Part shown: piece after piece, positions 22,861-55,644 of the stretch
Layout: the number at the start of each line of letters is the position of its first letter
Numbering within the stretch: position 1 is the first letter of the stretch
Assembly: GCF_020905345.1 (NCBI RefSeq)
Contig: NZ_JAJJMO010000001.1
Span: 2,728,001-2,792,000, forward strand
Direction: 5' to 3'
Length of the DNA: 64,000 nucleotides
Source of the DNA: Flavobacterium pisciphilum
GTDB taxonomy: Bacteria > Bacteroidota > Bacteroidia > Flavobacteriales > Flavobacteriaceae
The notes under the pieces: generated by a model
Databases searched by the model: none
Told to the model about the DNA's origin: nothing
The model's input: the letters and a program-made list of their open reading frames with translations, nothing else
Program-made: the position numbers and the translations under genes

Positions 22861-24414
22861 TTATAAATCAAATTTTATTCCTTGTGCCAATGGCAAACTT
22901 GTAGTATAATTGATTGTGTTGGTTTGACGACGCATGTAAATTTTCCAAGCATCAGAACCTGATTCACGACCACCACCAGTTTCTTTTTCACCACCAAAAG
23001 CACCACCAATTTCAGCACCAGAAGTTCCTATGTTTACGTTTGCAATACCGCAATCAGAACCTACAACTGATAAGAAATGCTCTGCTTCACGCAAATTATT
23101 GGTCATGATTGCTGAAGACAATCCTTGTGCAACACCGTTTTGAATGTCAACTGCATTTTCAACAGTTCCACTATATTTTATTAAATACAAAACAGGAGCA
23201 AACGTTTCGTGTTGTACAATTTCAAATGAATTCTGAGCTTCAGCTATAGCTGGTTTTACATAACAACCACTTTCATACCCTTCTCCAGAAAGTACTCCAC
23301 CTTCTACAAGAATTTTTCCTCCTTCAGCAACAACTTTTGTTAAAGCATTTGCATACATTGCTACTGCATCTGTATCGATAAGCGGACCAACATGGTTATT
23401 CTCATCCAAAGGATTTCCGATACGTAACTGTTTGTAAGCTGAAACAATCGCATCTTTTACTTTATCATAAATACTTTCATGAATAATCAAACGACGTGTT
23501 GATGTACAACGTTGTCCTGCAGTCCCTACAGCACCAAAAACAGCACCAATAACTGTCATTTTTATATCTGCATCTGGAGTAACAATAATTGCATTGTTTC
23601 CACCTAATTCTAATAATGATTTACCTAAACGTCCTGCAACAGCTTGTGCAACAATTTTACCCATACGAGTAGAACCTGTAGCTGAGATTAAAGGAATACG
23701 TTTATCATTTGTCATTAACTCCCCAACTTTGTAATCTCCATTTATTAAACAAGAAATTCCTTCTGGAAGGTTGTTCTCTTTAATTACTTGTGCAATTATA
23801 TTTTGGCAAGCTATTCCACAAAGTGGTGTTTTTTCAGATGGCTTCCACACGCAAACATCTCCACAAATCCAAGCTAAAGCTGTATTCCATGACCAAACCG
23901 CTACTGGAAAGTTAAATGCCGAAATAATTCCGACAACTCCCATTGGGTGATATTGCTCATACATACGGTGTCCTGGACGCTCTGAATGCATTGTTAAACC
24001 ATGAAGCTGACGTGATAATCCTACTGCGAAATCGCAAATATCAATCATCTCTTGAACTTCTCCATATCCTTCTTGTAATGATTTCCCCATTTCGTAAGAA
24101 ACCAATTTACCTAAAGCTTCTTTATTTTGACGCAATTTTTCTCCAAACTGACGCACAATTTCACCACGTTGTGGTGCTGGCATAAGTCTAAATACTTTAA
24201 AAGCTTCTGTTGCTGTCTGCATTACTTTTTCATAATCGGCAGCTGTTGATGTTTTTACTGATGCAATTAATTTTCCGTCTACTGGCGAAAAACTATCTAA
24301 GGTATCTCCTGAAGAAAAATGATTTATTCCAGTTGATGTCCCTTCGTTTATGGCTTTTATACCCAATTGCGCCAATGCGTCTTTCATTCCGAATTGCTCT
24401 GCTATTGTTATCAT
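22861..24414 (-). CDS. ALDH7-type aldehyde dehydrogenase (aminoadipate semialdehyde dehydrogenase-like)
   Basis: NAD-dependent aldehyde dehydrogenase of 517 residues, most like the ALDH7/AmaB group that oxidises 2-aminoadipate 6-semialdehyde (in equilibrium with piperideine-6-carboxylate). Active-site elements are N168 in AFNFPV, general base E269 in LLELGGNN and nucleophile C303 in TAGQRCTST. It is monocistronic, with a terminator. In lysine or hydroxylysine catabolism it would make 2-aminoadipate, which could link it to the kinase-phospholyase fusion at 41785-44088. The subgroup call rests on overall resemblance; other semialdehydes remain possible. Confidence 0.8.
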   Translation of the reverse strand: MITIAEQFGMKDALAQLGIKAINEGTSTGINHFSSGDTLDSFSPVDGKLIASVKTSTAADYEKVMQTATEAFKVFRLMPAPQRGEIVRQFGEKLRQNKEALGKLVSYEMGKSLQEGYGEVQEMIDICDFAVGLSRQLHGLTMHSERPGHRMYEQYHPMGVVGIISAFNFPVAVWSWNTALAWICGDVCVWKPSEKTPLCGIACQNIIAQVIKENNLPEGISCLINGDYKVGELMTNDKRIPLISATGSTRMGKIVAQAVAGRLGKSLLELGGNNAIIVTPDADIKMTVIGAVFGAVGTAGQRCTSTRRLIIHESIYDKVKDAIVSAYKQLRIGNPLDENNHVGPLIDTDAVAMYANALTKVVAEGGKILVEGGVLSGEGYESGCYVKPAIAEAQNSFEIVQHETFAPVLYLIKYSGTVENAVDIQNGVAQGLSSAIMTNNLREAEHFLSVVGSDCGIANVNIGTSGAEIGGAFGGEKETGGGRESGSDAWKIYMRRQTNTINYTTSLPLAQGIKFDL

Positions 24415-24499
24415 TGTAACTTTTTTGTTAAAAATTGTTATATTTATTTATGTAAATATATCTGAATTAATTTATCTATTAAAATTTAATTGTTTCTAA

Positions 24500-25393: not shown

Positions 25394-25522
25394 TATACTA
25401 TTTCGTTTTAAATTTAAGGTTGATTCAAAACCTATAAAGTTACGATTAAGGATTTGAAACAAGCAAAATGATTTATGTTTCACGCAACTATTGCAGATTA
25501 AAAACAGATTATTTGAGAAAAA

Positions 25523-25570
25523 AATCTACATATATCAGCTTAAATCTTGTGAAATCTGCGCGAAATAAAA
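25523..25570. repeat. Repeat-like intergenic segment between the corA genes
   Basis: The near-direct words TTAAATCTTGTG and GAAATCTGCGCGAAAT resemble low-complexity spacer sequence I recall from other Flavobacterium genomes. No gene is visible in 25394-25612. Confidence 0.3.
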
Positions 25571-25612
25571 TTTGTAATTCTTATTATTGAATTTATCTAT
25601 AAGTCAAACTTA

Positions 25613-26539: not shown

Positions 26540-26684
26540 AATGCAAAACGTTATTTTAGGAATAGCGCATGCATAATGCAACAACTACTCCTGTTTATCT
26601 TTCTTCTTCCTCGAATAATAATCGTCCATGTGGATAATTTATTTTTTTTTGCAAAAGTATATCTTTTATGTAGAAAACTCAGAA

Positions 26685-27224
26685 TTATTTTTTAGCCGTA
26701 AATCTCGGGTCTGATTCCATCACAGTACCACAATTAGTACAGGTTCTCAAATCCTTAGAATTGTAGAAATGCTCAAAGTGTGGCAAGAAATCTTTTTCGA
26801 TGTTATGAAGTTCAAAAAACACTTCGTACAATTTATGATTGCAAGTATCACAATGCCAAAGCAATCCATCTTTATGTCCTTTTCCAACTCGTTTTCTTTC
26901 GATTACCAAGCCTATAGAACCTTCTGAGCGTACTGGACAATGTGGTATACGAGCAGGATGAAGATACATATCTCCTGCATGCAAATCCATTTCTTTGCGC
27001 TCTCCGTCTTCTTGAATAATAACTTTTATACTCCCCTCAAGTTGGTAAAACAACTCTTCGGTTTCATTATAGTGATAATCCTTTCGGGCATTTGGTCCCG
27101 CAACAACCATTACAATATAATCTTCAGATTCGATATATAAGTTTTTATTACCTACTGGTGGTTTAAGTAGGTGACGATTTTCATCAATCCATTTAGTAAG
27201 ATTGAATGGTTTTGCTATAGCCAT
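26685..27224 (-). CDS. nbaC: 3-hydroxyanthranilate 3,4-dioxygenase
   Basis: Cupin dioxygenase of 179 residues that opens the ring of 3-hydroxyanthranilate in the kynurenine route to quinolinate/NAD or in tryptophan breakdown. Iron ligands H51, E57 and H95 and substrate arginines R47 and R99 fall at the numbering known from the Ralstonia enzyme. The rubredoxin-like second metal site is C125, C128, C162 and C165. No other kynurenine-pathway gene lies next to it. Confidence 0.95.
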   Translation of the reverse strand: MAIAKPFNLTKWIDENRHLLKPPVGNKNLYIESEDYIVMVVAGPNARKDYHYNETEELFYQLEGSIKVIIQEDGERKEMDLHAGDMYLHPARIPHCPVRSEGSIGLVIERKRVGKGHKDGLLWHCDTCNHKLYEVFFELHNIEKDFLPHFEHFYNSKDLRTCTNCGTVMESDPRFTAKK

Positions 27225-31962: not shown

Positions 31963-31998
31963 AATCCCTTTTTCAATTTAAAAATTGAGAAAGGGATT
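31963..31998 (+). terminator. Terminator after the ACT-like gene
   Basis: AATCCCTTTTTCAATTT pairs with AAATTGAGAAAGGGATT (one mismatch), followed by T run. Confidence 0.85.
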
Positions 31999-32708: not shown

Positions 32709-35700
32709 ATGAAACAATTAAAAAACTTACTTAGGAAGCCTTTTCTAATGCCGATCATTCTCCTTTTTTGGCTACCTAGTACGCTGCTTGCGCAGGAGAC
32801 TCAGGCAAAAAAAACTATCTCTGGAAAAGTTACAGATGATAAGAACAACACTTTACCAGGTGTTAGTATATCTATACAAGGCACTAAATACAATGCTGCA
32901 ACAGATTTTGACGGATCTTACACGCTAACGTATACTCCAAGTGGTACAAATCAAACTATTATTTTTTCATACGTAGGTTTTATAGAAAAAAAAGAAGCAC
33001 TTGATAATCGCCATGAGATAAATGTATCAATGCAAGAAGAAACTAATAAACTTAATGAGGTAATCGTTATTGGATATGGTTCTCAAAAGAAAAGTAATGT
33101 TACTGGAGCAATCTCATCTATAAAGAAGGAAAGCCTTGAAACACGAGCTACAACAAATCCTGCTGAGGCACTACAAGGCTTAGTTGCTGGAGTAAATGTG
33201 CAAAAAAGTGGTGGTATTGCTGGAGCTGATGTAAAAGTAAAAATACGTGGAGTAAATACCTTTGGAGCAACTGAACCTCTTTACATTATTGATGGATTTC
33301 AAGGTTCAATATCAACAGTAAACCCAACAAATATAGAATCTATGGAGGTTCTTAAAGATGGTGCAGCTGCTGCAATTTACGGATCTGTTGCTGCCAATGG
33401 AGTAATTATTGTAACAACAAAAAGCGGTCAAAAAGAAGGAGTAAAAGTAGATTTCAGCTCATTTTTGGCTTATAAAAACACGGCAAAAACACTAGATTTA
33501 TTAGATGCTGATGGTTATCGTACTGTACATAAAAGAATGTATGATGAATATAACAAATATGCTACTTCTCCTAAAACACTTCCTGCTTATATCACTGATC
33601 CATCAACAACTAATACCGACTGGCAAGATGAGGTGTTCCGTTCTGGACTTACTCAAAATTATGGTTTAGGTGTACAAGGAAGACAAGGCGATTTTAAATT
33701 TGCTTTATATGGTAACTATGTGAAAGAAAAAGGAATTGTTATCGACAATACTTTTGGTCAACAAACTGCTAGCGCAAGAGTTAGTTTCAAAAAATCAATT
33801 TTTGATGTAGATGGAAAAATGGCATTCATAGGAACGCAAAATGCATTACCTAATTTTCAATTAAGAGAAGTATATGCAATATCACCTTTAGTACCTGTTT
33901 ATGATGCAAATGAACCTTATGGTTATGGCTTAACAAACAAAAATGGTTTGCCTACTAATACAAACCCTGTTGCTGAAGAACATTTCAAAAAAAGAACGGA
34001 CAAAGGACAGGATTTAACAGCAAATATTGCGATAACTGCTAACATTAGCTCTTGGTTAAAATACAAAATAGCCTATTCTTATCGTGTAAAAAACAATCAA
34101 GACGCTGCTCATTTCCCTCCTTACATTGCAAACCCAAAAGAAGTTCACCTTTATCCATTGCAAACCGAAGTGAGAACACATTGGGATGAACAAATACTAG
34201 ACAACATTATAACAATTGATAAAACTTTTGGGAAACATACTTTTGGTTTAATGCTTGGTAATACTATAAATGGTGTATCATCAAACTGGAATCAAGTTAG
34301 CGTAGAAGGAAAAACAACTGATTATTCTGTAGAGAATGGACAATTGGTTTCAATAGATCGTCCATCTGGGTTTTTAGATCCTAGTTTCGAAACTATAGGC
34401 GCTGGTAAAGGAGGAACATACTCAGCAGATGGTTCAAAATATCAATACAATCGCGTTTCTTTCTTTAGCCGATTGAACTATTCTTTCAATGACCGTTACT
34501 TACTTCAAATGACCATTAGAAAAGATGGCTCATCTAAATTTGGAGAAGACAGCCGTTGGGGAACTTTCCCTTCTATCGCATTAGGATGGAAAATAGAGCA
34601 AGAAGACTTCTTCCCGAAAGACTTTATCATATCAACTTTAAAATTACGTGCTAGCTGGGGACAACTAGGTAACGAAGCTGCCTTAGGATACTATTCTGCA
34701 AACACATTAATTAGAACAGGAAACTCTTTAGATTCTGGTTACGTACAAGGAAACGGTAGTAATCCATGGCCTGGAAGTATTGCAACTACATTAGAAAACA
34801 GAAACCTACAATGGGAAACAACTGATTCTAAAAATATTGGTATTGATTTTACTCTTAAAAATGGAAAAATTAGTGGTTCTATGAACTACTACCATAATGT
34901 AACAGACAATTTATTGATTACAAAAAAACTAGCTCCATCTGCTGGAATTGATGATCCGATTTTAAACGTAGGTAAAATTAGCAATAGTGGATTTGAACTT
35001 GAAGTTAATTACCGCGATCAGGTTAATGAATTTAAATACAATGTAGGTTTCAACATGTCTACCCTTAAAAACAAAGTAATTTCACTTGCAAACGAAGGAC
35101 AGACAATTTATGGAGAAGGCTTAAAATATGGAGACGAACACTTCCCAACTCAAGCTCGCGTAGGAAATCCGATTAGTGGTTTCTATTTATACAAAACTGA
35201 TGGTATTTTTCAATCTGCGCAGGAAGTAGCCAATCACAGCAAAAATGGTGTTTTATTACAACCAAATGCACAACCTGGAGATATTCGATTTAAAGATTTA
35301 AACGGAGATGGTGTTATAGATGAAAATGATAAAGCATACTCTGGAACTGGATTACCAAAATTTGAGGCTAATATTAGTTTAGGAGCAAGTTATAAAGGTT
35401 TCGATTTCTCTGCATTAATAGGAAGTGGCTGGGGTAACAAATTATACAACGGAAACAGATATTTCTATGAATCTATGAACGCTGGAACCAATATGTTGGC
35501 TTCAACGCTAAATTCATGGACACCAGAAAACCCTACTAACACTCCTCGTGCCGTTTTACAAGATCCAAATGGAAATAGCCGCGAATCAGATCGTTTTCTT
35601 GAAAGTGGCGATTTTATAAGAATGCGTCAGTTACAAATTGGGTATACAATCCCTAATAAAATGCTAGGTGGAGCGAAAATAGACAAACTGAGAATTTATG

Positions 35701-35846
35701 TGAGTGCAGAGAACTTATTCACTATCACAAACTACTCAGGTATAGATCCAGAATTCTCACGTACTTCTGTTCTGAATACAGGAATTGACCGTTTCGTGTA
35801 TCCATTTACAAGAACGTTTGTAACAGGTGTTCAATACATATTTTAA
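32709..35846 (+). CDS. SusC/RagA-type TonB-linked outer membrane transporter
   Basis: Outer-membrane importer of 1045 residues. The signal peptide ends near A28. A carboxypeptidase-regulatory-like domain covers about 34-110 (GVSISIQGTKYNAATDFDGS). The plug starts at V-x-GYG (about 118-124) and contains MEVLKDGAAAAIYG, followed by a 22-strand-type barrel ending in VTGVQYIF. No extra STN domain is present, so ECF/anti-sigma control is not indicated. It pairs with the SusD homologue 23 bases downstream and should import an oligosaccharide or glycoconjugate for the enzymes encoded next. Confidence 0.96.
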   Translation: MKQLKNLLRKPFLMPIILLFWLPSTLLAQETQAKKTISGKVTDDKNNTLPGVSISIQGTKYNAATDFDGSYTLTYTPSGTNQTIIFSYVGFIEKKEALDNRHEINVSMQEETNKLNEVIVIGYGSQKKSNVTGAISSIKKESLETRATTNPAEALQGLVAGVNVQKSGGIAGADVKVKIRGVNTFGATEPLYIIDGFQGSISTVNPTNIESMEVLKDGAAAAIYGSVAANGVIIVTTKSGQKEGVKVDFSSFLAYKNTAKTLDLLDADGYRTVHKRMYDEYNKYATSPKTLPAYITDPSTTNTDWQDEVFRSGLTQNYGLGVQGRQGDFKFALYGNYVKEKGIVIDNTFGQQTASARVSFKKSIFDVDGKMAFIGTQNALPNFQLREVYAISPLVPVYDANEPYGYGLTNKNGLPTNTNPVAEEHFKKRTDKGQDLTANIAITANISSWLKYKIAYSYRVKNNQDAAHFPPYIANPKEVHLYPLQTEVRTHWDEQILDNIITIDKTFGKHTFGLMLGNTINGVSSNWNQVSVEGKTTDYSVENGQLVSIDRPSGFLDPSFETIGAGKGGTYSADGSKYQYNRVSFFSRLNYSFNDRYLLQMTIRKDGSSKFGEDSRWGTFPSIALGWKIEQEDFFPKDFIISTLKLRASWGQLGNEAALGYYSANTLIRTGNSLDSGYVQGNGSNPWPGSIATTLENRNLQWETTDSKNIGIDFTLKNGKISGSMNYYHNVTDNLLITKKLAPSAGIDDPILNVGKISNSGFELEVNYRDQVNEFKYNVGFNMSTLKNKVISLANEGQTIYGEGLKYGDEHFPTQARVGNPISGFYLYKTDGIFQSAQEVANHSKNGVLLQPNAQPGDIRFKDLNGDGVIDENDKAYSGTGLPKFEANISLGASYKGFDFSALIGSGWGNKLYNGNRYFYESMNAGTNMLASTLNSWTPENPTNTPRAVLQDPNGNSRESDRFLESGDFIRMRQLQIGYTIPNKMLGGAKIDKLRIYVSAENLFTITNYSGIDPEFSRTSVLNTGIDRFVYPFTRTFVTGVQYIF

Positions 35847-35869
35847 TTCTATTTCTAAAAGACACAATC

Positions 35870-37369
35870 ATGAAGAAGATATTTTTTATATTATCCGTTA
35901 TAGGCCTATGCACTACCACAAGTTGTAGTGACTATCTAGACCAACAATCTCCCGATGAACTTACTTCAAATAATTTCTGGAGAAACAAAGCCGATGCCGA
36001 ATCTGGTTTGGCAGCAACTTATTCTCAACTCGAAGGAGCAGTTGATCAGTGGGCTTTTGCTGAAGTAAAATGGCCAGTAGAAGCGTATCGCGAAGATATT
36101 TGTGAGCTTGGAAGCGACGCCTTAAATTACCAAAGCTGGGTAGAACTTTCAACATTTACCTATACCAATGGAAATAGTCAATTTACTAGCTATTGGAGAC
36201 TCAACTACAGAGGTATTAGTAATGCAAATCAAGTTATTGATAAGTTGCCACAAATTCCAGCTGCAACTATTACTGATGCTGACCGCAGACAAATTGAAGC
36301 CGAAGCTCGTTTTTTACGCGCCTATTATCACATGAAATTGCTTCTTAACTGGGAACAAATTTATATCAGAAACAAATATATAACCAAAGAAAGTGACCTA
36401 AACATTCCGTTGTCAACACGTGTAGAAACATGGAATTTCATTACAAGTGAACTTAAAGCTGTAGCCGAAATATTACCTCCTAAACAACCACAAGATAAAA
36501 CAGGTCGTGCAACTAGTGGAGCAGCTAATAGCTACTTAGGATTTGCTTATTTGACAAGAGCATACGAAGAAACAGCTCAAAAACAAATATTCTTAAATGA
36601 ATCGCTTGCTGCATTAAACAAAGTGCAAGGATATGATTTAGTAAAAGATTATGTTTCGATGTTTGATGGTACTATCAGAAATTCGAAAGAATCAATTTTT
36701 GAACTACAATTTTCAGAAACAACTGCTAATGGTGCTTTCTATCGTAATGCACTTCATTTTTGGATGGCAGCAGGTGAACTAGGCGGATGGGATGAAATTC
36801 TTCCGAGTACTATGCTTGTAGATGAATTTAAAAAAGAAGGAAAAATAGCTACTACAGGAAATTATGATACCCGTATGTATAGCATACTTTTCTTTAAAGA
36901 CCCATATTTTAATGACGCAGCTAATCCAAGAGTATTAGGAACTACTTATGATGACAAATTTGGCGGTACTGACAAGCCAGTATTCCGCAAATTCATACCA
37001 AACACTCAAGAAAAAATGGATCAAGAATATACTGCAATCAATGTACCGCTTATGCGATACTCGAATGTACTATTAATGCAAGCTGAAGCTCTAAATGAAT
37101 TAGGTCGTACTCCAGAAGCTATTCCATATATTAACAAAGTTCGTGATAGAGCAGATATGCCTGCAATGACTGGTACAACTGGTAATGAGGTAAAAGCTCA
37201 AATCGAACACGAAAGAATACTGGAATTCCCTCTTGAAAACTACCGTTTTTATGATTTACGTCGTTGGGGCAAAACAAAATCGGCTCTTGATGCTGTCGGT
37301 CGTACCGGTTTTGATGCTGCAAAAAACAATTTTTACCCAATTCCATTAACAGAATTACAAGCAAATTAA
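35870..37369 (+). CDS. SusD/RagB-type surface glycan-binding lipoprotein
   Basis: Predicted 499-residue lipoprotein. The signal peptide ends in TTTSC with lipidated C19, followed by the SusD N-terminal region (YLDQQSPDELTSNNFW) and the C-terminal SusD domain (EALNELGRTPEAIPYINKVR and a FYPIPLTELQAN end). SusD proteins cap the SusC barrel and bind the ligand. It is encoded just after its SusC partner. A hairpin terminator or attenuator follows before the enzyme genes. Confidence 0.95.
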   Translation: MKKIFFILSVIGLCTTTSCSDYLDQQSPDELTSNNFWRNKADAESGLAATYSQLEGAVDQWAFAEVKWPVEAYREDICELGSDALNYQSWVELSTFTYTNGNSQFTSYWRLNYRGISNANQVIDKLPQIPAATITDADRRQIEAEARFLRAYYHMKLLLNWEQIYIRNKYITKESDLNIPLSTRVETWNFITSELKAVAEILPPKQPQDKTGRATSGAANSYLGFAYLTRAYEETAQKQIFLNESLAALNKVQGYDLVKDYVSMFDGTIRNSKESIFELQFSETTANGAFYRNALHFWMAAGELGGWDEILPSTMLVDEFKKEGKIATTGNYDTRMYSILFFKDPYFNDAANPRVLGTTYDDKFGGTDKPVFRKFIPNTQEKMDQEYTAINVPLMRYSNVLLMQAEALNELGRTPEAIPYINKVRDRADMPAMTGTTGNEVKAQIEHERILEFPLENYRFYDLRRWGKTKSALDAVGRTGFDAAKNNFYPIPLTELQAN

Positions 37370-37394
37370 TCTACTAAACATTTGCAATTTCTAA

Positions 37395-37432
37395 AAGAAT
37401 AGCCCTATATTTCTTGGGCTATTCTTTTTATC
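37395..37432 (+). terminator. Terminator/attenuator between susD and the GH63 gene
   Basis: AAGAATAGCCC (37395-37405) and GGGCTATTCTT (37416-37426) form a perfect 11-bp stem followed by T run. It could keep SusCD levels above enzyme levels. Confidence 0.85.
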
Positions 37433-37517
37433 TAATGATTTCGTATTTCTCTATTAATCCCTACTGAAATAAAGAAATACATATCAAAATAAAAACATTC
37501 AATAAAGACGAAACAAC

Positions 37518-39524
37518 ATGGGCAAAAGGCAAACACTTTTTATTCTTACATTCTTTTTTATATCACAATCCAATTGGGCTCAAAAAACTTTTCCGATTTT
37601 AGAATCTTCTAAAAACAGTTTAAATTATAAAGGAAATCCAACAGAGGCTACAGATAGAAACTCATTGGCTTTCTCCGATAAAGGAGCATGGTTCGCATTC
37701 GGATTTCTAGAACCAACTCAAGTTAAAGCAGGCTTTTCTGGTCCTTTTTTAATGACTGAAGAAAACGGAGTTTGGCTAAGTCCTTCATTAGTTTCATTGC
37801 AACTTAATGACGAAAACAAACACGAAGCCATCAACTGGAAAAATGCCTTAGTGAGCCAAAACAGCTACAATAGCCATTTAGAACAACAATTTCAAAACGA
37901 AAAATTAGACATAAAGCAGCAACTTGTTTTTTTATCAGGTCATTCGGCATTGCAAAAAACAAGTATTACCAATAAAACTGGAAAGACCATAACACTTTAC
38001 CCCTCTTATGATTCCAATCTTTTTATAGATAACATACAGTTATCTAAAGAAAACAAAATATTAAAAATTGCTTCTAGAAAAAGTACTGCCATTGGATACA
38101 TTCAATTCCTTAACGCAACACCCGAAATCGAAATTACCAAACAAGGATATAAAGCTCAAACAGACAAATTAGTATTAAAGCCAAACGAAACCAAAGAGCT
38201 TGTTGTTTCTCAAACCTTTATTTTCCCTCAATATTCATGGAAAAACGAAAATGAAACCATAGCAAAAACAACATTCAATACACTTCTTAAAAACACCCAA
38301 AAAGAAAAAGAAAACCAATTGGCACAATTAATTGCCAAAAAGAAAACAGTTTACAAAGACGCCATCTACTCTGATTTGGTCGCTAAACTAGTGCTTACAC
38401 TGCAAAACAATACCCGAATTGCAGCTGAAGGATTAAAACACGGAGGGCTTTTTCCGAGTTACAACTACAAATGGTTTCACGGATTTTGGGCATGGGACAG
38501 CTGGAAACATGCAGTTGCGGTTGCAAATTATGATTCAGAATTGGCCAAAAACCAAATGCGCGCCCTATTTGATTATCAAGAACCAAACGGATTTATTCCA
38601 GATTGTATATACAGAAACAACCTAATCGAAGAAAACAATTACCGAAATACCAAATCTCCACTTGCTGCATGGGCAATCTGGAAAATTTATGAAAAGACAA
38701 AAGATGCCAACTTCATAAAGGAATTTTATCCTAAACTAAAGCTATACCACAACTGGTGGTACAAAGAGCGTGACCATGATCAAGATGGTTTATGCGAATT
38801 TGGATCAACAGATGGTACCTTAGTCGCTGCCAAATGGGAAAGCGGAATGGACAATGCAGTGCGTTTTGACGATAGCAAAATTCTGAAAAATGGAGATAAA
38901 GCCTATTCATTAGACCAAGAAAGCGTTGATTTAAATTCGTTTTTATATGCCGAAAAGAACTTTTTAAATAAGATGGCAGAGGTATTGAAACTAACTGAAG
39001 AAGCTAAAAAATGGCAAGAAGAAAGTGTAACACTAAAAGCTAAAATTCAAACCCAATTCTGGGATGCAACCACAGGTTGGTATTACGATACATCAATCGA
39101 TGGAAAAACGTTAATAAAAGCAATGGGATGCGAAGGCTATTTACCGATTTGGGCAGAGGTGGCTACTACCGAGCAAACCAAATTAATAAAAGAAAACATG
39201 CTTAACCCAGCTACACTTAACACTTTTGTTCCTTTACCAACATTAGCAGCAAATCACCCAAAATTCAAACCAAATAACGGTTATTGGAGAGGGCCAATCT
39301 GGCTTGATCAAAGTTATTTTGGTATAAATGGATTGGAGAAATATGGCTATACAAACGAAGCAAATCAATTGGCTCACAAACTAATTCATAATGCCGAAGG
39401 AGTTATAGATAAAGGCACATCTATTCGAGAAAATTACCAACCACTTACAGGAAAAGGGCTAGAAGCTTTTAATTTTAGTTGGTCAGCCTCACATTATTTA
39501 ATGCTTCTTTTAGAAGACAAATAG
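37518..39524 (+). CDS. GH63 family exo-alpha-glucosidase, YgjK-like
   Basis: Predicted 668-residue (alpha/alpha)6-barrel glycosidase with a signal peptide (cleavage near NWAQ), so periplasmic. It closely resembles E. coli YgjK along the barrel: WAWDSWK (D327), RNTKSPLAAWA, AKWESGMDNA (D445, likely general acid), LDQESVD, NTFVPLPT, YWRGPIWLDQ and IRENYQPLTG (E638, likely base), FNFSWSASHY. GH63 enzymes release glucose from alpha-linked ends. I recall that YgjK glycosynthase work pointed to Glc-alpha-1,2-Gal as its likely natural motif. It is followed 45 bases later by a GH42 gene. Confidence 0.88.
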   Translation: MGKRQTLFILTFFFISQSNWAQKTFPILESSKNSLNYKGNPTEATDRNSLAFSDKGAWFAFGFLEPTQVKAGFSGPFLMTEENGVWLSPSLVSLQLNDENKHEAINWKNALVSQNSYNSHLEQQFQNEKLDIKQQLVFLSGHSALQKTSITNKTGKTITLYPSYDSNLFIDNIQLSKENKILKIASRKSTAIGYIQFLNATPEIEITKQGYKAQTDKLVLKPNETKELVVSQTFIFPQYSWKNENETIAKTTFNTLLKNTQKEKENQLAQLIAKKKTVYKDAIYSDLVAKLVLTLQNNTRIAAEGLKHGGLFPSYNYKWFHGFWAWDSWKHAVAVANYDSELAKNQMRALFDYQEPNGFIPDCIYRNNLIEENNYRNTKSPLAAWAIWKIYEKTKDANFIKEFYPKLKLYHNWWYKERDHDQDGLCEFGSTDGTLVAAKWESGMDNAVRFDDSKILKNGDKAYSLDQESVDLNSFLYAEKNFLNKMAEVLKLTEEAKKWQEESVTLKAKIQTQFWDATTGWYYDTSIDGKTLIKAMGCEGYLPIWAEVATTEQTKLIKENMLNPATLNTFVPLPTLAANHPKFKPNNGYWRGPIWLDQSYFGINGLEKYGYTNEANQLAHKLIHNAEGVIDKGTSIRENYQPLTGKGLEAFNFSWSASHYLMLLLEDK

Positions 39525-39569
39525 TTAAACTAATTACCTAAATTCGATTAACCATCAATAAAACCAAGT

Positions 39570-41705
39570 ATGTTCAAGCAAAATATATCTTTAGTTAAAA
39601 TTTTATTTACCCTATTATTTATTGCAAATTGTAATTCAAATCCTGTTTTCTCTCAAAGTAAAAAGACTACTCCTTCAGAGAAAAAAGACCCACAACGTTT
39701 CTTTTCAAAACCCGATTTAATGCAAATTGGTGTTTATTACTATCCTGAACAATGGCCGAGAGAACAATGGGAACGTGATTTAAAAAACATAAAAAAACTA
39801 GGGTTTGAGTTTACTCATTTTGCTGAATTTGCTTGGACTTATATGGAACCTGAAGAAGGAAAATATGATTTTAAATGGCTAGATGATGCTCTAGCTATCG
39901 CGGAAAAAGAAGGTTTAAAAGTAATTCTTTGTACTCCAACTCCAACTCCCCCAGCATGGATGGGAGATAAATATCCTGAAATTTATTTAGTAGATGCAAA
40001 CGGACGCCGCAGAGAGCATGGTAATAGAGCAAATGTGTCTATAACAAATGAAAAATACCGCGAATTTACAGATCAGATAATAGCCGAATTAGGAAAAAGA
40101 TACGGTAAGAATAAAAACATTATGGGTTGGCAAATCGATAACGAACCTTTGGGTAGTGCCGATTTTAGTCCTTCTGCTCGTAAAGCATTTCAAATTTGGC
40201 TTAAAGCCAAATACGGAACAATCGAAAAACTAAATACAGAATGGGTAGGAAACTTTTGGAGTACTCGTTATAACAACTTCGAACAAATAGTTATCCCTAA
40301 TGCAGAAATTTATTTTGAGGATAAATTAAGCCCACACGCGATCTTAGATTTTAAAAGATTTACCTCAGATGCACAAGGTGAATATTTAAACAGACAAGCC
40401 AAAATACTTCGAAAATACGTTGATTCAAAACAATGGATAACAACCAACTTTACTAATGTAATTTACGATGCCGATCCAAGAAGTGCTAACAAAATGGATT
40501 TTATTACCTACACGATGTATCCTGTGAGTGGAAGAAATCCATTAGGAGGAGATAGTTTTAGAATAGGACATCCAAACAAAATTTCGGAAGCCAACGATTA
40601 TTACAGATCTATAAGCGGTGTTACTGGTGTTATGGAATTACAACCAGGACAAGTAAATTGGGCTAGCATAAATCCACAATTACTTCCCGGAACAGTTCAT
40701 ATGTGGATATCACAAGCTTTTGGTGGCGGTTGCTCATTTACTTGCACCTATAGATACAGACACCCACTAGGAAGTAGCGAAATGTACCACGATGGAATCG
40801 TAGGAACTGATGGCGTAACTCTTACTACTGGCGGAAAAGAATTTGTACAATCTATCCAAGATATGAAATTACTTCGTGCAGCATACAATCCAAAAGCAGT
40901 AATCCCACAGGACATTGCCAAAAGAAAAACAGGCTTTTTATGGAGTCACGAAAATCTTTGGGATTTAGAAAACCAAAAACAAACTGAATTCTGGAGTACA
41001 TGGAAACACAGATCTATCTATACAACTGCTATAAAATCAACTGGAGCACCAATGGATTTTATTACCGAAGAAGATGATTTCTCTGCTTATCCGTTTATTG
41101 TTGCACCCGCTTACCAACTTATAGATCAAAAATTAGTTGACAAATGGACTAAATATGTAGAAAACGGAGGAAACTTAATTCTTTCTTGCCGTACCGGTCA
41201 AAAGGATAGAAACGGGCATTTTTTCGAAGCCAATTGGAGCGCACCAATTGTACCGCTAATTGGAGCCGATGTTGAGTTTTTTGACATGCTTGTTGCCGAT
41301 GTCAACGGAACAATAAGTTCTGGTAACACTACTTATAAATGGAACACATGGGCAGATGTACTGAACCCAAAACAAGGAACTGAAGTTCTAGCAACATATA
41401 CAGACCAGTTTTACAAAGGTAAAGCGGCAGCCATTACAAGAAAACTAGGCAAAGGAACCGTTACTTATATTGGAGCAGAAAGCAAAGATGGAAATCTGGA
41501 AAGACAAGTTGTACGAACTATTTACGAACGTGCAAAAGTTGCTATCGAAGATTTACCAAAGGGTGTATTTGTAGAATGGAGAGATGGTTTTTATGTAGGT
41601 GTAAACTATACAAACGAACCTATAAACTTACCAATACCACAAGGAAGTAAAATCCTTGTTGGACAAAATCCTTTGCAACCAGCCCAAGCTATTATTTGGA
41701 AATAG
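39570..41705 (+). CDS. GH42 family beta-galactosidase
   Basis: TIM-barrel beta-galactosidase of 711 residues with an exported N terminus; C21 in FIANCNSN could be lipidated, though the lipobox is atypical. Diagnostic features are IGVYYYPEQWPREQWERDL, acid/base E192 in GWQIDNEPLG and nucleophile E356 in GVMELQPGQVNW, then the trimerisation and C-terminal domains. GH42 enzymes cleave terminal beta-galactosides. Next to an alpha-glucosidase and a hydroxylysine-type kinase, a galactosyl-hydroxylysine substrate is plausible but unproven. Confidence 0.93.
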   Translation: MFKQNISLVKILFTLLFIANCNSNPVFSQSKKTTPSEKKDPQRFFSKPDLMQIGVYYYPEQWPREQWERDLKNIKKLGFEFTHFAEFAWTYMEPEEGKYDFKWLDDALAIAEKEGLKVILCTPTPTPPAWMGDKYPEIYLVDANGRRREHGNRANVSITNEKYREFTDQIIAELGKRYGKNKNIMGWQIDNEPLGSADFSPSARKAFQIWLKAKYGTIEKLNTEWVGNFWSTRYNNFEQIVIPNAEIYFEDKLSPHAILDFKRFTSDAQGEYLNRQAKILRKYVDSKQWITTNFTNVIYDADPRSANKMDFITYTMYPVSGRNPLGGDSFRIGHPNKISEANDYYRSISGVTGVMELQPGQVNWASINPQLLPGTVHMWISQAFGGGCSFTCTYRYRHPLGSSEMYHDGIVGTDGVTLTTGGKEFVQSIQDMKLLRAAYNPKAVIPQDIAKRKTGFLWSHENLWDLENQKQTEFWSTWKHRSIYTTAIKSTGAPMDFITEEDDFSAYPFIVAPAYQLIDQKLVDKWTKYVENGGNLILSCRTGQKDRNGHFFEANWSAPIVPLIGADVEFFDMLVADVNGTISSGNTTYKWNTWADVLNPKQGTEVLATYTDQFYKGKAAAITRKLGKGTVTYIGAESKDGNLERQVVRTIYERAKVAIEDLPKGVFVEWRDGFYVGVNYTNEPINLPIPQGSKILVGQNPLQPAQAIIWK

Positions 41706-41784
41706 AAGAAATATGCTTTTAATTTATAACCTCATTTAGCTCCAAAAATCTTAACCGATAAAAATAATTTAATACCAAATACCA

Positions 41785-44088
41785 ATGATTTTTTCAGAAG
41801 CAGACATTCAGCAATTAGCGATAGAACATTATGGGTTATCCGCTACCGTAAAAGCACTAGACGGCTATGATGAATTGAATTTCATACTAACCGATGAAAA
41901 AAATCAGAAGTATATCTTAAAGCTTTCTGATGAAAATCAGCCCCATCCCTTCTTGGAAGCACAGGTAAAAATCATTCAGCACTTAAGAAAAAGTCCATTA
42001 GCCGATAATTTTCAGCAATTTTCTATAAATAAAAAAGGGGAAGCATTAACTCAAATTGCTAAAGACAATAAAACATATTATATACGGATTCTAAGTTTTC
42101 TCGAAGGTTCTTTCTGGTATGAACAACCAAAAAAATCAAATACTGCTCTTTACAATTTAGGAGCATTTATGGGGAATATGGACAAAGCATTACAGGATTT
42201 TTCACATCCAGCAATGCATCGCCATTATACTTGGGACATTAGCAGAGCTAGTGACGCCAATGAGAAACTGAAGTATATTACAAATCACGAACGCAGACGA
42301 ATTGCAGGTTATTTTCTTTTGCAGTTTGATACCGAAGTGCTTCCGCAAATACACCAGCTTCGACACGCATACATTCATAATGATGCCAACGACTGTAATG
42401 TAATGGCACGAGAAGAAAAAACAACTGGATTAATTGATTTTGGCGATATGGTTTATTCTGCCTTAATCAATAACCTTGCGATAGCTTGTACGTATGCAAT
42501 CCTAGAATATGATGATCCATTAACAGCTGCATCATTTATTGTAAAAGGATATCACGAAGCCTATCCTCTTAAAACAGAGGAACTTGATTTGTTATATTAC
42601 TTAATTGCAGGAAGACTTTGCATAAGCGTAACACAATCAGCATACAATGCATCTTTAAACAGCGATAACATACATCATTTTATTACCGAAAAACCGGCTT
42701 GGGAGTTATTATACAAACTCATCAAGATTAATCCCATAAAAGCACAAGATACTTTTAGAAAAGTATGCGGATTTGATGGTGTAATAAACGATTCGGATTA
42801 TTCGGATTTATTAGAACTTCGTCAAAAAAACGTAGGTCGAAATCTAAGTATTGGCTACAACGACAAATTAAAAATTGTAAAAGGAGCATTACAATATTTA
42901 TATGACGACAAAGGAAGAACTTTTGTCGATTGTGTAAACAATCCCTCTCATGTTGGGCATTGCCATCCTGTAGTGGTAAAGAAAATGCAAAAACAAATTG
43001 CGACTTTAAACACCAATACAAGGTACCTTAACAATACAATATTAGAATACGCCGAAAAACTTACTGCTACATTACCTCCCTCATTAAGCGTGTGCTATTT
43101 TGTAAACTCAGGTAGTGAGGCCAACGATTTAGCCATCCGAATGAGTCGCCATTACACCAAACAAAAAGATATTGTAGTACTAGACCATGCGTATCACGGA
43201 ACCTCAACCGTAGCAATGGAAATGAGTCCTTATAAATTTGATAGTAAAGGAGGTTTTGGTAAAATGCCTTGGATTCATAAAGCAATTAACCCCGACTTAT
43301 ATCGTGGCCCATATAAATATGGTGATGCTAATGCAGGCGAAAAATATGCCGCTGATGTACAACGAATTATTGAAGATTTAAAAAAAGAAAACAAATCGCC
43401 AGCAGTATTTATCTGTGAAACCCTATTGGGTGTTGGAGGTCAAATTCCGCTACCTGATAATTATTTAAAAACTGTTTATGATTACGTAAGAGCCTCAGGA
43501 GGTGTATGCATTGCCGATGAGGTACAAGTAGGTTTTGGAAGAGTTGGGGATAAGTTCTGGGGATTCGAACTGCAAGATGTGGTTCCAGATATTGTTGTAC
43601 TCGGAAAACCTATTGGTAACGGACACCCGCTTGCAGCAGTAATTGTAACAAATGAAATAGCCGATGCTTTTAATAACGGCATGGAATACTTCAATACTTT
43701 TGGAGGGAATCCGGTATCTATGTCAGCTGGATTAGCCGTTCTAGAAGTAATTCAAGATGAAGAAATGCAACAGCACGCTTTGGAAGTAGGCAATCACCTA
43801 ATGGATTTACTAAAAGGATTAATGAATAAGTTTCCAATTATCAGCGATGTTCGTGGTCATGGATTATTTATTGGTGCCGAAATGGTAAAAGACAGGACCA
43901 CTATGGAACCAGCAATTCCAGAAATTGATATTGTAGTCGAAAAGATGAAAGAGAAAGGGTATTTACTAAGCACAGATGGGCCTTTACACAATGTTTTAAA
44001 GATAAAACCACCAATGCCATTCAATAAGCAAAATGCGGATGAAATGGCTCGATACCTTGAAGAAATTTTAAATGAGATTGGTCTTTAG
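41785..44088 (+). CDS. APH-type kinase fused to AGXT2L-type PLP phospholyase
   Basis: Two-domain cytoplasmic enzyme (767 residues). Residues about 1-330 form an aminoglycoside-phosphotransferase-like kinase with H198, D200 and N205 in HNDANDCN and DFG at 218-220. Residues about 345-767 form a class III aminotransferase-fold enzyme with SGSEAND (442-448), D578 in [10 protein letters not shown] and PLP lysine K608 in [10 protein letters not shown]. In animals, hydroxylysine kinase and the AGXT2L2 phospholyase act in sequence, giving 2-aminoadipate semialdehyde; AGXT2L1 acts on phosphoethanolamine. The fusion implies a shared intermediate. No signal peptide. Last gene of the locus. Confidence 0.87.
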
Positions 44089-44150
44089 AATAAATTAATT
44101 GTCAATTAGTTAATTACTCCACTGGGAATTTTTTATCTCAATAAATTAAA

Positions 44151-44183
44151 AAGGCGTATGAAATTTTCATACGCCTTTTTTTT
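44151..44183 (+). terminator. Terminator of the glycan locus
   Basis: AAGGCGTATG (44151-44160) and CATACGCCTT (44168-44177) form the stem, followed by a T run. Confidence 0.9.
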
Positions 44184-44235: not shown

Positions 44236-45582
44236 TTATCCTTTAAGCACCTTACTTTTCTCTTCATCAAATTCTTCTTGCGAAAGAATTCCTGCATCAA
44301 GCAGTTCTTTTAAATCCAATAACGCTTTCTTTTTAGCAGCCATCGGATCTTGTTCTGTACCATTTGTTGGTTGACTTTGTTGCTGCTGAGGTGCAACAGT
44401 TGTTCCTGCGGGACTTGCCTTTAAAATGAATTCCGTTATTTCATTAAAGCCTTTAATATTACTGTAATCAATAGCTTTTTGTTCTTTTACATTCACAATG
44501 CTTAAATCTGCATTTTGGTCTAAAAGATATTTTACAACATCTTTCTTTCCACTTGCCGCAGCATAATGCATAGGTGTATTACCACTTTCATCTTGAATAT
44601 TAATGTTTGCATCTCTTTCGATCAGCAATTTCACCATACTTAAATTACCTTTTTTAGCAGCTACATGCAACAAACTTTCACCACCATAACTATAAGAAGC
44701 ATTAAGTGTAAATGTTGCTTCAATTGAAATGTTGTTAGCGGCTTCTATCCAATCTAAATAACTGTTCATAGAAGTAGTATCTTCGCTAAGTGGCTTACTA
44801 AAATTGACATCTACTCCATTATCTAAGAATAGTTCAACCATTTCTTTCTGATTCTTAGCACAAACATACCAAACAGGCAGAAGTCCATTATTTGAAGTTG
44901 TTAATACATCAGCACCTTTATCAATCAGCAGTTTCACAATTGCCCTGTTTGCTTCATAACAAGCAATTAGTAAAGCACTTTCTCCAGCATGATTAGCATG
45001 GTTGATATCAACACTATTATCTAAAAGCAAAGTCACTATAGGCAAGGCTTTAGAACGAACAGCAAGGATAAGTGTGTTATCACCTATTTTATTGGTCGTA
45101 TTAATTTCTGCACCATTGTTCAATAACAATTCAACAATTTCTTTGTTTCTCAAACTAGCTGCGATTAATAGTGCTGTTTCAGCATTATTATCAGGCATAT
45201 CAACATCAAAACCTTGTTCAAGTAATTGTTTAACAATTTCAGTTTGTCCGGTTTGCGCAGCAAGGTGCAATAAACTTTTGCCTTGTTTATCTTTGATAGT
45301 TACATCAGCCCCTTTATCAAGAAGATAAGTTGCTGTTTGCTTTTGTTTCTGAAGACAGGCAAAAAACAAGGATGTTTCGCCATTATGATCTTCGTAATTA
45401 ATAGCTGCACCTTCATCAATAAGGATTTTTACTATATCAAGATAACCGCGATGTGCAGCATAATGTAATGCTGTTCGTCCTCTTTCATCAGTATATTTTA
45501 CATCTACTTCTTTATTGGCTAGCAATAACTCTGCAATTTTCCTATTACCATTTTCACAGGCAATTATAAATGACATTGACAT
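44236..45582 (-). CDS. Ankyrin-repeat protein with C-terminal SHOCT domain
   Basis: Predicted 448-residue protein made of about ten ankyrin repeats (GRTALHYAAHRGYLDIVKIL, GETSLFFACLQKQKQTATYL and so on). A Gln-rich linker follows, then a short SHOCT-type domain at the end (ALLDLKELLDAGILSQEEFD). SHOCT segments are short oligomerisation-like helices often found at protein termini. No signal peptide. It lies 35 bases after a second ankyrin gene in a likely operon. The partner protein is unknown. Confidence 0.9.
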   Translation of the reverse strand: MSMSFIIACENGNRKIAELLLANKEVDVKYTDERGRTALHYAAHRGYLDIVKILIDEGAAINYEDHNGETSLFFACLQKQKQTATYLLDKGADVTIKDKQGKSLLHLAAQTGQTEIVKQLLEQGFDVDMPDNNAETALLIAASLRNKEIVELLLNNGAEINTTNKIGDNTLILAVRSKALPIVTLLLDNSVDINHANHAGESALLIACYEANRAIVKLLIDKGADVLTTSNNGLLPVWYVCAKNQKEMVELFLDNGVDVNFSKPLSEDTTSMNSYLDWIEAANNISIEATFTLNASYSYGGESLLHVAAKKGNLSMVKLLIERDANINIQDESGNTPMHYAAASGKKDVVKYLLDQNADLSIVNVKEQKAIDYSNIKGFNEITEFILKASPAGTTVAPQQQQSQPTNGTEQDPMAAKKKALLDLKELLDAGILSQEEFDEEKSKVLKG

Positions 45583-45617
45583 TTTTATAGTTTTTTAAAT
45601 TATAGTTTTTTTGATTT

Positions 45618-46802
45618 TTATACTTTTTGCTGCATCAATAGTTCAACCGTTTTTATTTTAAGGTTGTCTGTTTGTGCTAGCGCTGAAGGAGTTTCATCTT
45701 TATCATTTACAACACTTGCATCAGCACCTGCACCCAATAATAATTTCACTTTCTGGTAGATACCCTTCGCCGCTTCTGCATCATAATTTACATTAAATGC
45801 GCATACTTTATGCAATACTGTGTTACCTGTATCGTCTTTTCTGTCAATATCTATATTCCCATTTTCTAATACAGCTTTCAGTACTGCTGCAGGTTTTTCT
45901 GCAAGCCAATCTACACCAGATTTTGGAGCGCTATAATAAAGACCTGTTTGATAAATATCGGCACCATCATTTAGCATTTCTAATAAAAATGCAATTTGAT
46001 TTTCTGATGCTCCAACCCCTTTTATAAAAGCTGGAAGAATACGTTCACCATCATTATTTTCTAAATCAAAATCTGGAGAAGCATATTGTTTTAATATTTT
46101 GTATAATTCAAAATCCTGCTGCCAATTAACCGCTAAATAAAATGCTGTATTCCCTTTATTATCCTGTTCATTAGCATCAGCTCCGTTTTGTAATAGAAAT
46201 TCCAAGCATTCTTTTTTTCTATCTTTTACTGCCGCCATCAATGGCGTTTCGCCAACGATGTCTTTTTCATTTACATCTAAACCTTCTGCAATCAACAATT
46301 CTAAATAAGCCAATGCCTGTTGAGTGTTCTGCATTCTTTTATTCACCACTTCATAAATAAAGTTCCGCTCTGCATTATTTTTGTAGCGAACATCACAACC
46401 TTCTTCAATCAAACATTTAATAATGGCAGGGTCTGCACCTTGCTCTAAACAATATCCTAGCAGGGTTTGATCTTTTACCTCATCGTTTTTATTATCAATT
46501 TTCTGCATGAACTCTTTCAGGAAAGAAATTGATTCATCATCCCCTTTCAATTCTGTAGCAATAGTTTTAAAGAATGATTTATCAAAGCTGTCATATTCAT
46601 AAACATCAGTTTCTATTATGCCGTTTTTAACTAAAGAATCAACTAAATCAAATGCCTTTGATCGTAGAATACTACTGAATATTTGCCCTTTATTATTTTC
46701 AAAATAGTGCCCCGAAAGTTTCTCTCCCTCATTTAATAATAATCTTGCTTCATCGATTTTCCCATAAAGGATTGCTTCAGCTAATTTGTTTTGTTCTGAC
46801 AT
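45618..46802 (-). CDS. Ankyrin-repeat protein
   Basis: Predicted 394-residue cytoplasmic protein with diverged ankyrin repeats, clearest at GETPLMAAVKDRKKECLEFL, GNTAFYLAVNWQQDFELYKI and GNTVLHKVCAFN near the end. It is the upstream member of a pair with the SHOCT-tailed ankyrin protein. The repeats of the two proteins differ enough that recent duplication is unlikely. No other recognisable domain. Confidence 0.88.
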   Translation of the reverse strand: MSEQNKLAEAILYGKIDEARLLLNEGEKLSGHYFENNKGQIFSSILRSKAFDLVDSLVKNGIIETDVYEYDSFDKSFFKTIATELKGDDESISFLKEFMQKIDNKNDEVKDQTLLGYCLEQGADPAIIKCLIEEGCDVRYKNNAERNFIYEVVNKRMQNTQQALAYLELLIAEGLDVNEKDIVGETPLMAAVKDRKKECLEFLLQNGADANEQDNKGNTAFYLAVNWQQDFELYKILKQYASPDFDLENNDGERILPAFIKGVGASENQIAFLLEMLNDGADIYQTGLYYSAPKSGVDWLAEKPAAVLKAVLENGNIDIDRKDDTGNTVLHKVCAFNVNYDAEAAKGIYQKVKLLLGAGADASVVNDKDETPSALAQTDNLKIKTVELLMQQKV

Positions 46803-55582: not shown

Positions 55583-55591
55583 GGGCTATAT

Positions 55592-55622
55592 AATAAAAAA
55601 TGGAAGGGTTGCCACCCTTCCA
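55592..55622 (-). terminator. Terminator after the S8 protease gene
   Basis: TGGAAGGGT (55601-55609) and ACCCTTCCA (55614-55622) form the stem. On the minus strand it is followed by a T run (55595-55600). Confidence 0.8.
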
Positions 55623-55644
55623 TCGGATTAATATTCTATACAAT

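What the first reader, a model, noticed from the sequence alone, without database searches (positions are those of the whole stretch)
32709..44088. Candidate utilisation locus for collagen glucosylgalactosyl-hydroxylysine
Five co-directional genes lie between terminators at 31963 and 44151: a SusC/SusD importer, a YgjK-like GH63 alpha-glucosidase, a GH42 beta-galactosidase and a kinase-phospholyase fusion of the hydroxylysine type. Collagen carries Glc-alpha-1,2-Gal-beta-O-hydroxylysine. The gene set matches its stepwise breakdown: GH63 removes the alpha-1,2-glucose, GH42 removes the beta-galactose, the APH domain phosphorylates hydroxylysine, and the AGXT2L domain eliminates phosphate and ammonia to give 2-aminoadipate semialdehyde. 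Family assignments and order are read from the sequence; the animal hydroxylysine pathway and the preference of YgjK for Glc-alpha-1,2-Gal are recalled knowledge; the combined pathway is inference. A hydroxylysine permease and a collagenase are missing from the locus.
Basis: partly seen in the sequence, partly recalled or inferred. Interest (0 to 1): 0.93.

Follow-up and report, generated by a model that had tools for sequence, protein, structure and literature searches.

The report
Locus for eating collagen's sugar-tagged hydroxylysine
A Flavobacterium-like bacterium carries a five-gene cassette that looks built to import and dismantle the sugar-decorated hydroxylysine found in animal collagen, and relatives have assembled the same pathway with different enzymes, which makes this function likely and easy to test.

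Summary
Five co-directional genes (SusC, SusD, YgjK-like GH63, GH42, APH/class-III phospholyase fusion) lie at 32709-44088 between two terminator-like hairpins. The reading, glucosyl-galactosyl-hydroxylysine use, gains strong independent comparative support but no enzymology. In 199 same-genus genomes the GH63 (E 1e-60) occurs in 22, all within the 24 that hold the close fusion. Relatives place beside the core: an aminoadipate-semialdehyde (P6C) dehydrogenase, a 2-oxoadipate dioxygenase (HGLS) and a D-2-hydroxyglutarate-dehydrogenase homologue (the expected route after the phospholyase); in some, genes for both hydroxyprolines and Xaa-Pro-type peptidases (pointing to collagen), or galK/galT. 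In Chitinophaga and Pedobacter a LacZ-type GH2 stands in for GH42; once a GH31 stands in the GH63 place. In 12 of 40 neighbourhoods of longer fusions from other Flavobacteriaceae, GH63 and GH2 lie near the fusion. Sixteen neighbourhoods of distant (38-45%) fusions have none of 17 marker genes. The window's genome has a separate island for both hydroxyprolines but no HGLS match, so its route beyond aminoadipate is open. Animal Hyl kinase/phospholyase and YgjK are known; my paper searches found no bacterial glyco-hydroxylysine locus. New variant of a known kind (a PUL for a glycosylated amino acid).

The parts
31963..31998 (+). terminator-like hairpin closing the upstream gene
   Evidence: 16 pairs, T-rich tail
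32709..35846 (+). SusC-type TonB-dependent outer-membrane importer
   Evidence: TIGR04056
35870..37369 (+). SusD-type surface lipoprotein
   Evidence: PF07980, PF14322
37518..39524 (+). YgjK-like GH63 alpha-glucosidase with signal peptide (by eye); proposed to remove alpha-1,2-glucose; D445/E638 align with YgjK D501/E727
39570..41705 (+). GH42 beta-galactosidase with N-terminal signal or lipoprotein-like peptide (by eye); proposed to remove beta-galactose from hydroxylysine
41785..44088 (+). bifunctional APH-type kinase / class-III PLP phospholyase, no signal peptide seen; H198, D200, N205, D218 and K608 (GKPIGNGHP) invariant in 8 aligned homologues
44148..44180 (+). terminator-like hairpin after the fusion gene (also scored on -)
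   Evidence: 15 pairs, T-rich tail
22861..24414 (-). the one P6C (aminoadipate-semialdehyde) dehydrogenase match of this genome at E 1e-150; probable next enzyme, outside the operon; such a gene is in 184 of 199 same-genus genomes
   Evidence: NF050084 829 bits, cut-off 730

Best explanation
The locus is a SusC/SusD utilisation cassette for glucosyl-galactosyl-hydroxylysine (Glc-alpha-1,2-Gal-beta-O-Hyl), free or in short peptides, released from collagen. SusC/SusD import it; periplasmic GH63 removes glucose; GH42 removes galactose; hydroxylysine enters the cytosol by a permease not in this locus; the APH domain phosphorylates its 5-hydroxyl; the PLP domain eliminates phosphate and ammonia to give 2-aminoadipate semialdehyde (spontaneously P6C); P6C dehydrogenase gives 2-aminoadipate. 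In many relatives HGLS and a D-2-hydroxyglutarate dehydrogenase would then lead to 2-oxoglutarate. Shown: genes, order, conserved catalytic residues, conserved neighbourhoods. Inferred: substrates, compartments, order of steps, and the transaminase step, for which no gene was assigned. The animal pathway chemistry is recalled knowledge.
For: (1) GH63 in 22 of 199 same-genus genomes, all among the 24 with the close fusion (Fisher p 3e-27, phylogeny not corrected). (2) HGLS in 17 of 24 fusion genomes against 5 of 175 others, 13 of the 17 within about 13 kb of the fusion (places); a second P6C-dehydrogenase copy in 13 of 24 against 1 of 175. (3) In other lineages HGLS lies directly after the fusion instead of upstream of SusC, at 35-38% identity to the Flavobacterium one (L140, L164, L169, L173, L174, L188; L164 and L174 also P6C dehydrogenase). 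(4) Swapped enzymes of like function among the 80 loci: GH42 in 33, LacZ-type GH2 in 25 (22 one or two genes before the fusion, 2 joined to GH63, 1 after the fusion), GH63 in 50, GH31 in the GH63 place in L157. (5) Longer-fusion loci: GH63 in 13 of 40, GH2 in 15, both in 12, galK with galT in 4. (6) Collagen markers: T3LHypD-type with pyrroline-2-carboxylate reductase, 4-hydroxyproline epimerase and M24 peptidases in the same stretch in L117, L125, L222, L225; T3LHypD-type genes in 13 of 24 fusion genomes against 1 of 175 (2 if a 305-bit match in G393, left out of that count, is T3LHypD too), 4-hydroxyproline-epimerase-type in 19 of 24 against 12 of 175. (7) Own genome has both hydroxyproline gene sets. 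(8) 0 of 16 distant-fusion neighbourhoods carry any of 17 markers.
Against: No activity is measured. Sequence does not separate hydroxylysine from ethanolamine specificity: the nearest solved lyase is ethanolamine-phosphate phospho-lyase (6tor) and the kinase domain has no PDB sequence match at E 0.01. HGLS gives no match in the window's genome and is missing from 7 of 24 fusion genomes; the window's only D2HGDH homologue at E 1e-30 is 52% and elsewhere. No collagenase or Hyl permease in the locus; the M9 search was null even in controls, so says nothing. 22 of 80 fusion loci have neither glycosidase nearby (some contigs are short), 12 of them one clade, 11 of which have a 313-363-aa gene directly before the fusion (an alpha/beta hydrolase by Pfam in the one tested). 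27 of 40 longer-fusion loci lack GH63. HGLS, P6C-dehydrogenase and hydroxyproline genes are each beside only part of the 80 loci: HGLS in 9, P6C dehydrogenase in 22, T3LHypD-type and 4HypE in 2 (the stretches often end inside or before where such genes would lie).
Confidence: 0.86

Rival explanations
1. The fusion handles another amino alcohol (for example ethanolamine to acetaldehyde), and the glycosidases serve a glycoside of that alcohol.
For: Nearest solved lyase is ethanolamine-phosphate phospho-lyase; 22 of 80 loci lack both glycosidases; the 16 distant fusions have other neighbours.
Against: P6C dehydrogenase and HGLS beside the core in two sets of lineages, on opposite sides, fit aminoadipate semialdehyde, not acetaldehyde; hydroxyproline genes beside it in some.
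Confidence: 0.06
2. The glycosidases and importer are a general alpha-glucoside/beta-galactoside PUL that happens to sit beside an amino-acid catabolic gene.
For: GH42, GH2 and GH63 are broad families; several loci have no SusC/SusD in the stretch seen (L068, L070, L122, L131, L133).
Against: 22 of 22 GH63 genomes hold the close fusion and none of the other 175 has the GH63 at E 1e-60; short or overlapping gaps between GH2, GH63 and fusion in Chitinophaga and Pedobacter; replacement by a different family of the same activity class.
Confidence: 0.05
3. The fusion acts on hydroxylysine, but the carrier is not animal collagen (for example viral, protist or bacterial collagen-like proteins).
For: Many hosts are not named after animals (titles); collagen-like proteins outside animals exist (recalled).
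Against: Genes for trans-3- and trans-4-hydroxyproline and M24 peptidases in the same stretches fit animal collagen best; some species names point to fish (tructae, oncorhynchi, branchiicola; names, meaning recalled).
Confidence: 0.08

Closest known systems
Animal hydroxylysine kinase (HYKK/AGPHD1) and 5-phosphohydroxylysine phospholyase (PHYKPL/AGXT2L2); Veiga-da-Cunha 2012 (title seen in reference lists; content recalled; paper not held)
   Same: APH-type kinase plus class-III PLP phospholyase, giving aminoadipate semialdehyde.
   Different: Fused in one bacterial protein inside an importer-glycosidase operon. That bacterial bi- and trifunctional homologues were noted there is recalled.
E. 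coli YgjK (GH63)
   Same: Domains PF21152 and PF03200; aligned catalytic D/E; a YgjK structure with glucose and lactose has galactose at subsite +1 (PMC7263609 passages).
   Different: Below the NCBIfam YgjK equivalog cut-off; among 199 same-genus genomes found only where the fusion is.
Protein-glucosylgalactosylhydroxylysine glucosidase (PGGHG, GH65)
   Same: [quoted passage not shown] PMC11012932 passages).
   Different: GH65, animal; here GH63 (once GH31) is proposed for the same bond.
Colwellia collagen-utilisation cluster (PMC7883544, passages)
   Same: Clustered hydroxyproline catabolism and peptidases for collagen.
   Different: M9 collagenase; the word hydroxylysine does not occur in the paper (one search count 0) and the passages show no glycan step in that cluster; here glycosidases and hydroxylysine enzymes.
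Flavobacterium psychrophilum SusCD proposed for collagen oligopeptides (PMC9723704, passages)
   Same: SusC/SusD importer linked to collagen breakdown in the same genus.
   Different: Proposed for oligopeptides beside a collagenase and a peptidyl-dipeptidase; hydroxylysine not mentioned (0 occurrences); not compared here by sequence.
HglS / DUF1338 lysine catabolism (PMC7286885, start of abstract in listing)
   Same: 2-oxoadipate to D-2-hydroxyglutarate, gene beside the core in relatives.
   Different: Entry here is proposed from hydroxylysine; no HGLS match in the window's genome.

Membership tests
Polysaccharide (glycan) utilisation locus | adjacent susC-susD pair with co-directional glycoside hydrolases | tested here: met
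Polysaccharide (glycan) utilisation locus | substrate-induced, co-regulated expression | not testable with these tools
   no regulator gene among the five genes; no expression data
GH63 (YgjK-like) | Pfam domains over cut-off and catalytic Asp/Glu conserved | tested here: met
YgjK equivalog NF007525 | score over curated cut-off 625 | tested here: not met
   352.4 bits
GH42 beta-galactosidase | PF02449 and PF08532 over cut-off | tested here: met
   alignment to 6lvw
Hydroxylysine kinase-phospholyase | APH kinase domain plus AGXT2L-like PLP lyase domain | tested here: met
Hydroxylysine kinase-phospholyase | activity on 5-hydroxylysine and its phosphate | not testable with these tools
   context only
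PRK06148/PRK06149 NCBIfam models | score over curated cut-off (1128 / 973) | tested here: not met
   963.5 and 634.4 bits; Pfam lists no M23 domain in the window's fusion
Collagen-derived hydroxyproline catabolism in the same genome | 4HypE, D-amino-acid-dehydrogenase homologue, T3LHypD, pyrroline-2-carboxylate reductase present | tested here: met
   L252 by blastp, (Cys-Cys and Cys-Thr pairs; typing rule from PMC4364671 passages); PF05544 twice

The most novel reading that the evidence does not exclude
Bacteroidota hold a widespread but undescribed collagen-matrix island that couples stripping of the Glc-Gal glycan with catabolism of hydroxylysine and, in many members, both hydroxyprolines. 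Its beta-galactosidase (GH42 or GH2), its alpha-glucosidase (GH63, possibly GH31) and its downstream genes were recruited more than once around one kinase-phospholyase fusion, and at least part of the longer APH-M23-phospholyase family of other Flavobacteriaceae does the same job.
Probability: 0.7. Interest if true: 0.86.

Novelty: new variant of a known kind. Interest (0 to 1): 0.82.

Why it matters
Collagen is among the most abundant animal proteins, and glycosylated hydroxylysine is its signature residue, yet my searches found no bacterial route for it (an open-licence library only). If right, it proposes a substrate for a large fusion family, gives a genome marker for collagen-matrix eaters, and supplies enzymes for mapping collagen glycosylation.

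Tried and rejected
Rejected: P6C dehydrogenase presence as evidence by itself (184 of 199 genomes); only its second copy and position count. Rejected: reading the M9 collagenase search as absence (0 of 199, but nothing rang in 14 controls). The APH domain alone has no PDB sequence match at E 0.01. Structure prediction was not run: nearest-fold matches would not settle kinase or lyase specificity. The Fisher values ignore phylogeny and genome size and serve as description only. The fusion tree is a quick one with 23 of 84 inner branches open; it needs 7 changes for GH63+GH2 and 3 for GH63+GH42, so 'recruited more than once' is likely, the exact number is not known; L176, found later to have a GH2 after the fusion, is labelled there as having none. 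Papers named in the listings but not cited by passages were seen as listings only.

Rows and limits: the 199 genomes are a draw from a larger genus. The 23 non-own close-fusion genomes were all fetched. The longer-fusion set is 40 of about 72 matches with frames of roughly 950 aa or more (36 of 67, 4 of 5), counted by eye; frame length, not Pfam, defined it (M23 was shown by Pfam in one, L222). The controls are 16 of about 36 distant full-length fusions. L004 (58% fusion, 4-kb contig) was left out of neighbourhood counts. GH2 identity rests on Pfam for L139, L165, L169, L172, L214 and L222 and on blastp or motif for the rest.
Full report
Observation. Two hairpins with T-rich tails, 31963-31998 and 44148-44180, flank them. 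Catalytic residues of GH63 align with YgjK (D445/E638 with D501/E727) and are invariant in six family members. Kinase and PLP motif residues of the fusion are invariant in eight. Over the larger set (the 80 loci plus the window) simple motif patterns were matched in 50 of 51 GH63 (not fully in L133), 33 of 34 GH42 (not fully in L125), 21 of 22 GH2 (first motif not in L150) and 78 of 81 fusions (kinase motif not in L147, L180, L188). GH63 and GH42 start with signal-like peptides and the fusion does not (read by eye), so sugars would be removed outside the cytosol and hydroxylysine handled inside.

Same genus. Of 199 genomes drawn from the window's genus, 24 (own included) hold a fusion of 64-100% identity and six more hold only a distant match. 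GH63 is found in 22 of 199 at E 1e-60, every one among those 24. In the 23 other loci the order GH63-GH42-fusion on one strand is kept in 20; L073 has GH42 and GH63 beside the fusion on the other strand; L069 and L074 lack them. L056 sits at the same chromosomal site as the window (218-aa gene upstream, Mfd downstream) but has a SusC/SusD pair of only 33-34% identity; L068 and L070 show none. The enzymes are the core and the importer varies.

Steps after the phospholyase. The expected product is 2-aminoadipate semialdehyde, which cyclises to P6C (recalled). In relatives such as L062 the genes directly upstream of SusC encode a P6C dehydrogenase (NF050084, 829.7 bits, cut-off 730) and an HGLS-family 2-oxoadipate dioxygenase (PF07063, 110 bits, cut-off 25), and the gene directly downstream of the fusion a YdiJ-like D-2-hydroxyglutarate dehydrogenase, below its equivalog cut-off (563.8 against 1350). 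HGLS occurs in 22 of 199 genomes, 17 of them among the 24 fusion genomes, 13 within about 13 kb of the fusion (places). A second P6C dehydrogenase copy occurs in 14 genomes, 13 of them fusion genomes. HglS converts 2-oxoadipate to D-2-hydroxyglutarate (PMC7286885, start of abstract seen in the listing).

Other families. A scan of GTDB species genomes with an alignment of eight fusion proteins gave 524 confirmed candidates, of which the best 80 were kept. Near the fusion there are 33 GH42, 25 GH2 of LacZ type (two of them, L169 and L173, in one protein of about 1650 aa with GH63; one, L176, after the fusion at 42% identity and cut by the contig end), 50 GH63 and one GH31 (L157); 22 loci have neither kind. 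In Chitinophaga, Pedobacter and Niabella the order is SusC-SusD-GH2-GH63-fusion with small gaps or overlaps among the enzymes. In L164 and L174 HGLS and P6C dehydrogenase follow the fusion; HGLS alone follows in L140, L169, L173 and L188. So the same functions recur on the other side of the operon, carried by distant relatives (HGLS 35-38% identity). The fusion tree needs several changes of glycosidase set. L139, L145, L150, L172 and L188 have GH2 but no GH63, and L191 GH42 but no GH63.

Longer fusions. Other genera of the family carry roughly 1000-aa fusions, with APH, M23 and aminotransferase domains in the one scanned (L222). Of 40 fetched neighbourhoods, GH63 is in 13, GH2 in 15 and both in 12; galK in four, each with galT (L214, L237, L239, L250). 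Three of the GH2 hits (the 1113-, 1095- and 1106-aa ones of L214, L237 and L249) are only 37-40% alike to the query; of these only L249 depends on such a hit. Hydroxyproline genes are near the fusion in nine of the 40 (L218, L222, L223, L225, L231, L232, L235, L239, L249; 4HypE in 7, T3LHypD-type in 5). About half of the 40 show neither glycosidases nor hydroxyproline enzymes.

Collagen. L117 and L125 carry P2C reductase, T3LHypD-type, GH63, GH42, fusion and an M24 peptidase in a row, with the 4-hydroxyproline cluster close by. L222 combines 4-hydroxyproline epimerase (569.8 bits, cut-off 376), a D-amino-acid dehydrogenase homologue (below cut-off), an Xaa-Pro aminopeptidase homologue (below cut-off), GH2, fusion, GH63, T3LHypD-type and P2C reductase (386 bits, cut-off 322). 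T3LHypD scores are under their equivalog cut-off (about 370 against 540), but 10 of 12 copies examined (L058 and L117 probably being one gene) show the Cys-Thr pair that PMC4364671 gives for T3LHypD (passages); the second motif was not matched in L218 and L222. The window's genome has such an island far away (L252: 4HypE, dehydrogenase, two M24 peptidases, M43 protease, T3LHypD-type, P2C reductase, by blastp). Over the 199 genomes T3LHypD-type genes are in 13 of 24 fusion genomes against 1 of 175 others (a 305-bit match in G393 was left out; 2 of 175 with it), and 4HypE-type in 19 of 24 against 12 of 175. Trans-3-hydroxyproline and glycosylated hydroxylysine are both typical of collagen, type IV above all (recalled).

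Controls. Sixteen neighbourhoods of 38-45% fusions (L075-L090) have none of 17 marker genes. Within a clade of 12 (L151, L153-L156, L158-L161, L163, L166, L167) has no glycosidase; 11 have a 313-363-aa gene directly before the fusion, an alpha/beta hydrolase by Pfam in the one scanned (L158), and may serve another substrate.

Gaps. No activity is shown. HGLS was not found in the window's genome, P6C dehydrogenase is a single match outside the locus (window 22861-24414), and the D2HGDH homologue is 52%. The transaminase, the permease (one APC-type neighbour in L054) and the collagenase are not settled.

Literature. Searches for hydroxylysine kinase with bacteria, glucosylgalactosyl hydroxylysine with bacteria and glycoside hydrolases, phosphohydroxylysine with lyase and fusion, hydroxylysine catabolism with aminoadipate, PUL with collagen and hydroxylysine with hydroxyproline clusters or marine degradation listed no title or start of abstract that describes such a locus. 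The library is partial. The nearest are PGGHG (GH65), a Colwellia collagen cluster (PMC7883544, passages) and a SusCD system proposed for collagen oligopeptides in F. psychrophilum (PMC9723704, passages).

Noticed in passing
L169:5056-9996 and L173:4974-9998: GH2 LacZ and GH63 are joined in one long protein (1646 and 1674 aa) in Flavihumibacter, directly before the fusion gene (Pfam on L169 only).
   Followed up: partly
L157:7736-9994: A GH31 stands where GH63 would be, with GH92 after the fusion, in a Saprospiraceae genome bin.
   Followed up: partly
L151, L153-L156, L158-L161, L163, L166, L167: Clade without glycosidases; 11 of 12 have a 313-363-aa gene (alpha/beta hydrolase in the one scanned) directly before the fusion; substrate may differ.
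   Followed up: partly
L212-L251: The longer fusions (M23 domain between kinase and lyase in the one scanned) have an unknown use for that domain and are often followed by a roughly 143-aa DUF4440 protein.
   Followed up: partly
L056: Same chromosomal site and same enzymes as the window, but a SusC/SusD pair of only 33-34% identity.
   Followed up: no
window 44236-46802 (-): Two ankyrin-repeat proteins lie between the locus and mfd; the relatives L113-L115 have other genes there.
   Followed up: no
window 22861-27224 (-): The genome's P6C dehydrogenase lies near two CorA transporters and a 3-hydroxyanthranilate dioxygenase gene.
   Followed up: partly
window 53705-61739: M1 and S8 peptidase genes and a large LRR/laminin-G protein with a Por secretion tail lie downstream.
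   Followed up: no
L138: Flavobacterium psychrophilum DSM 3660 has the fusion (79%) without glycosidases in the 22-kb stretch seen.
   Followed up: no
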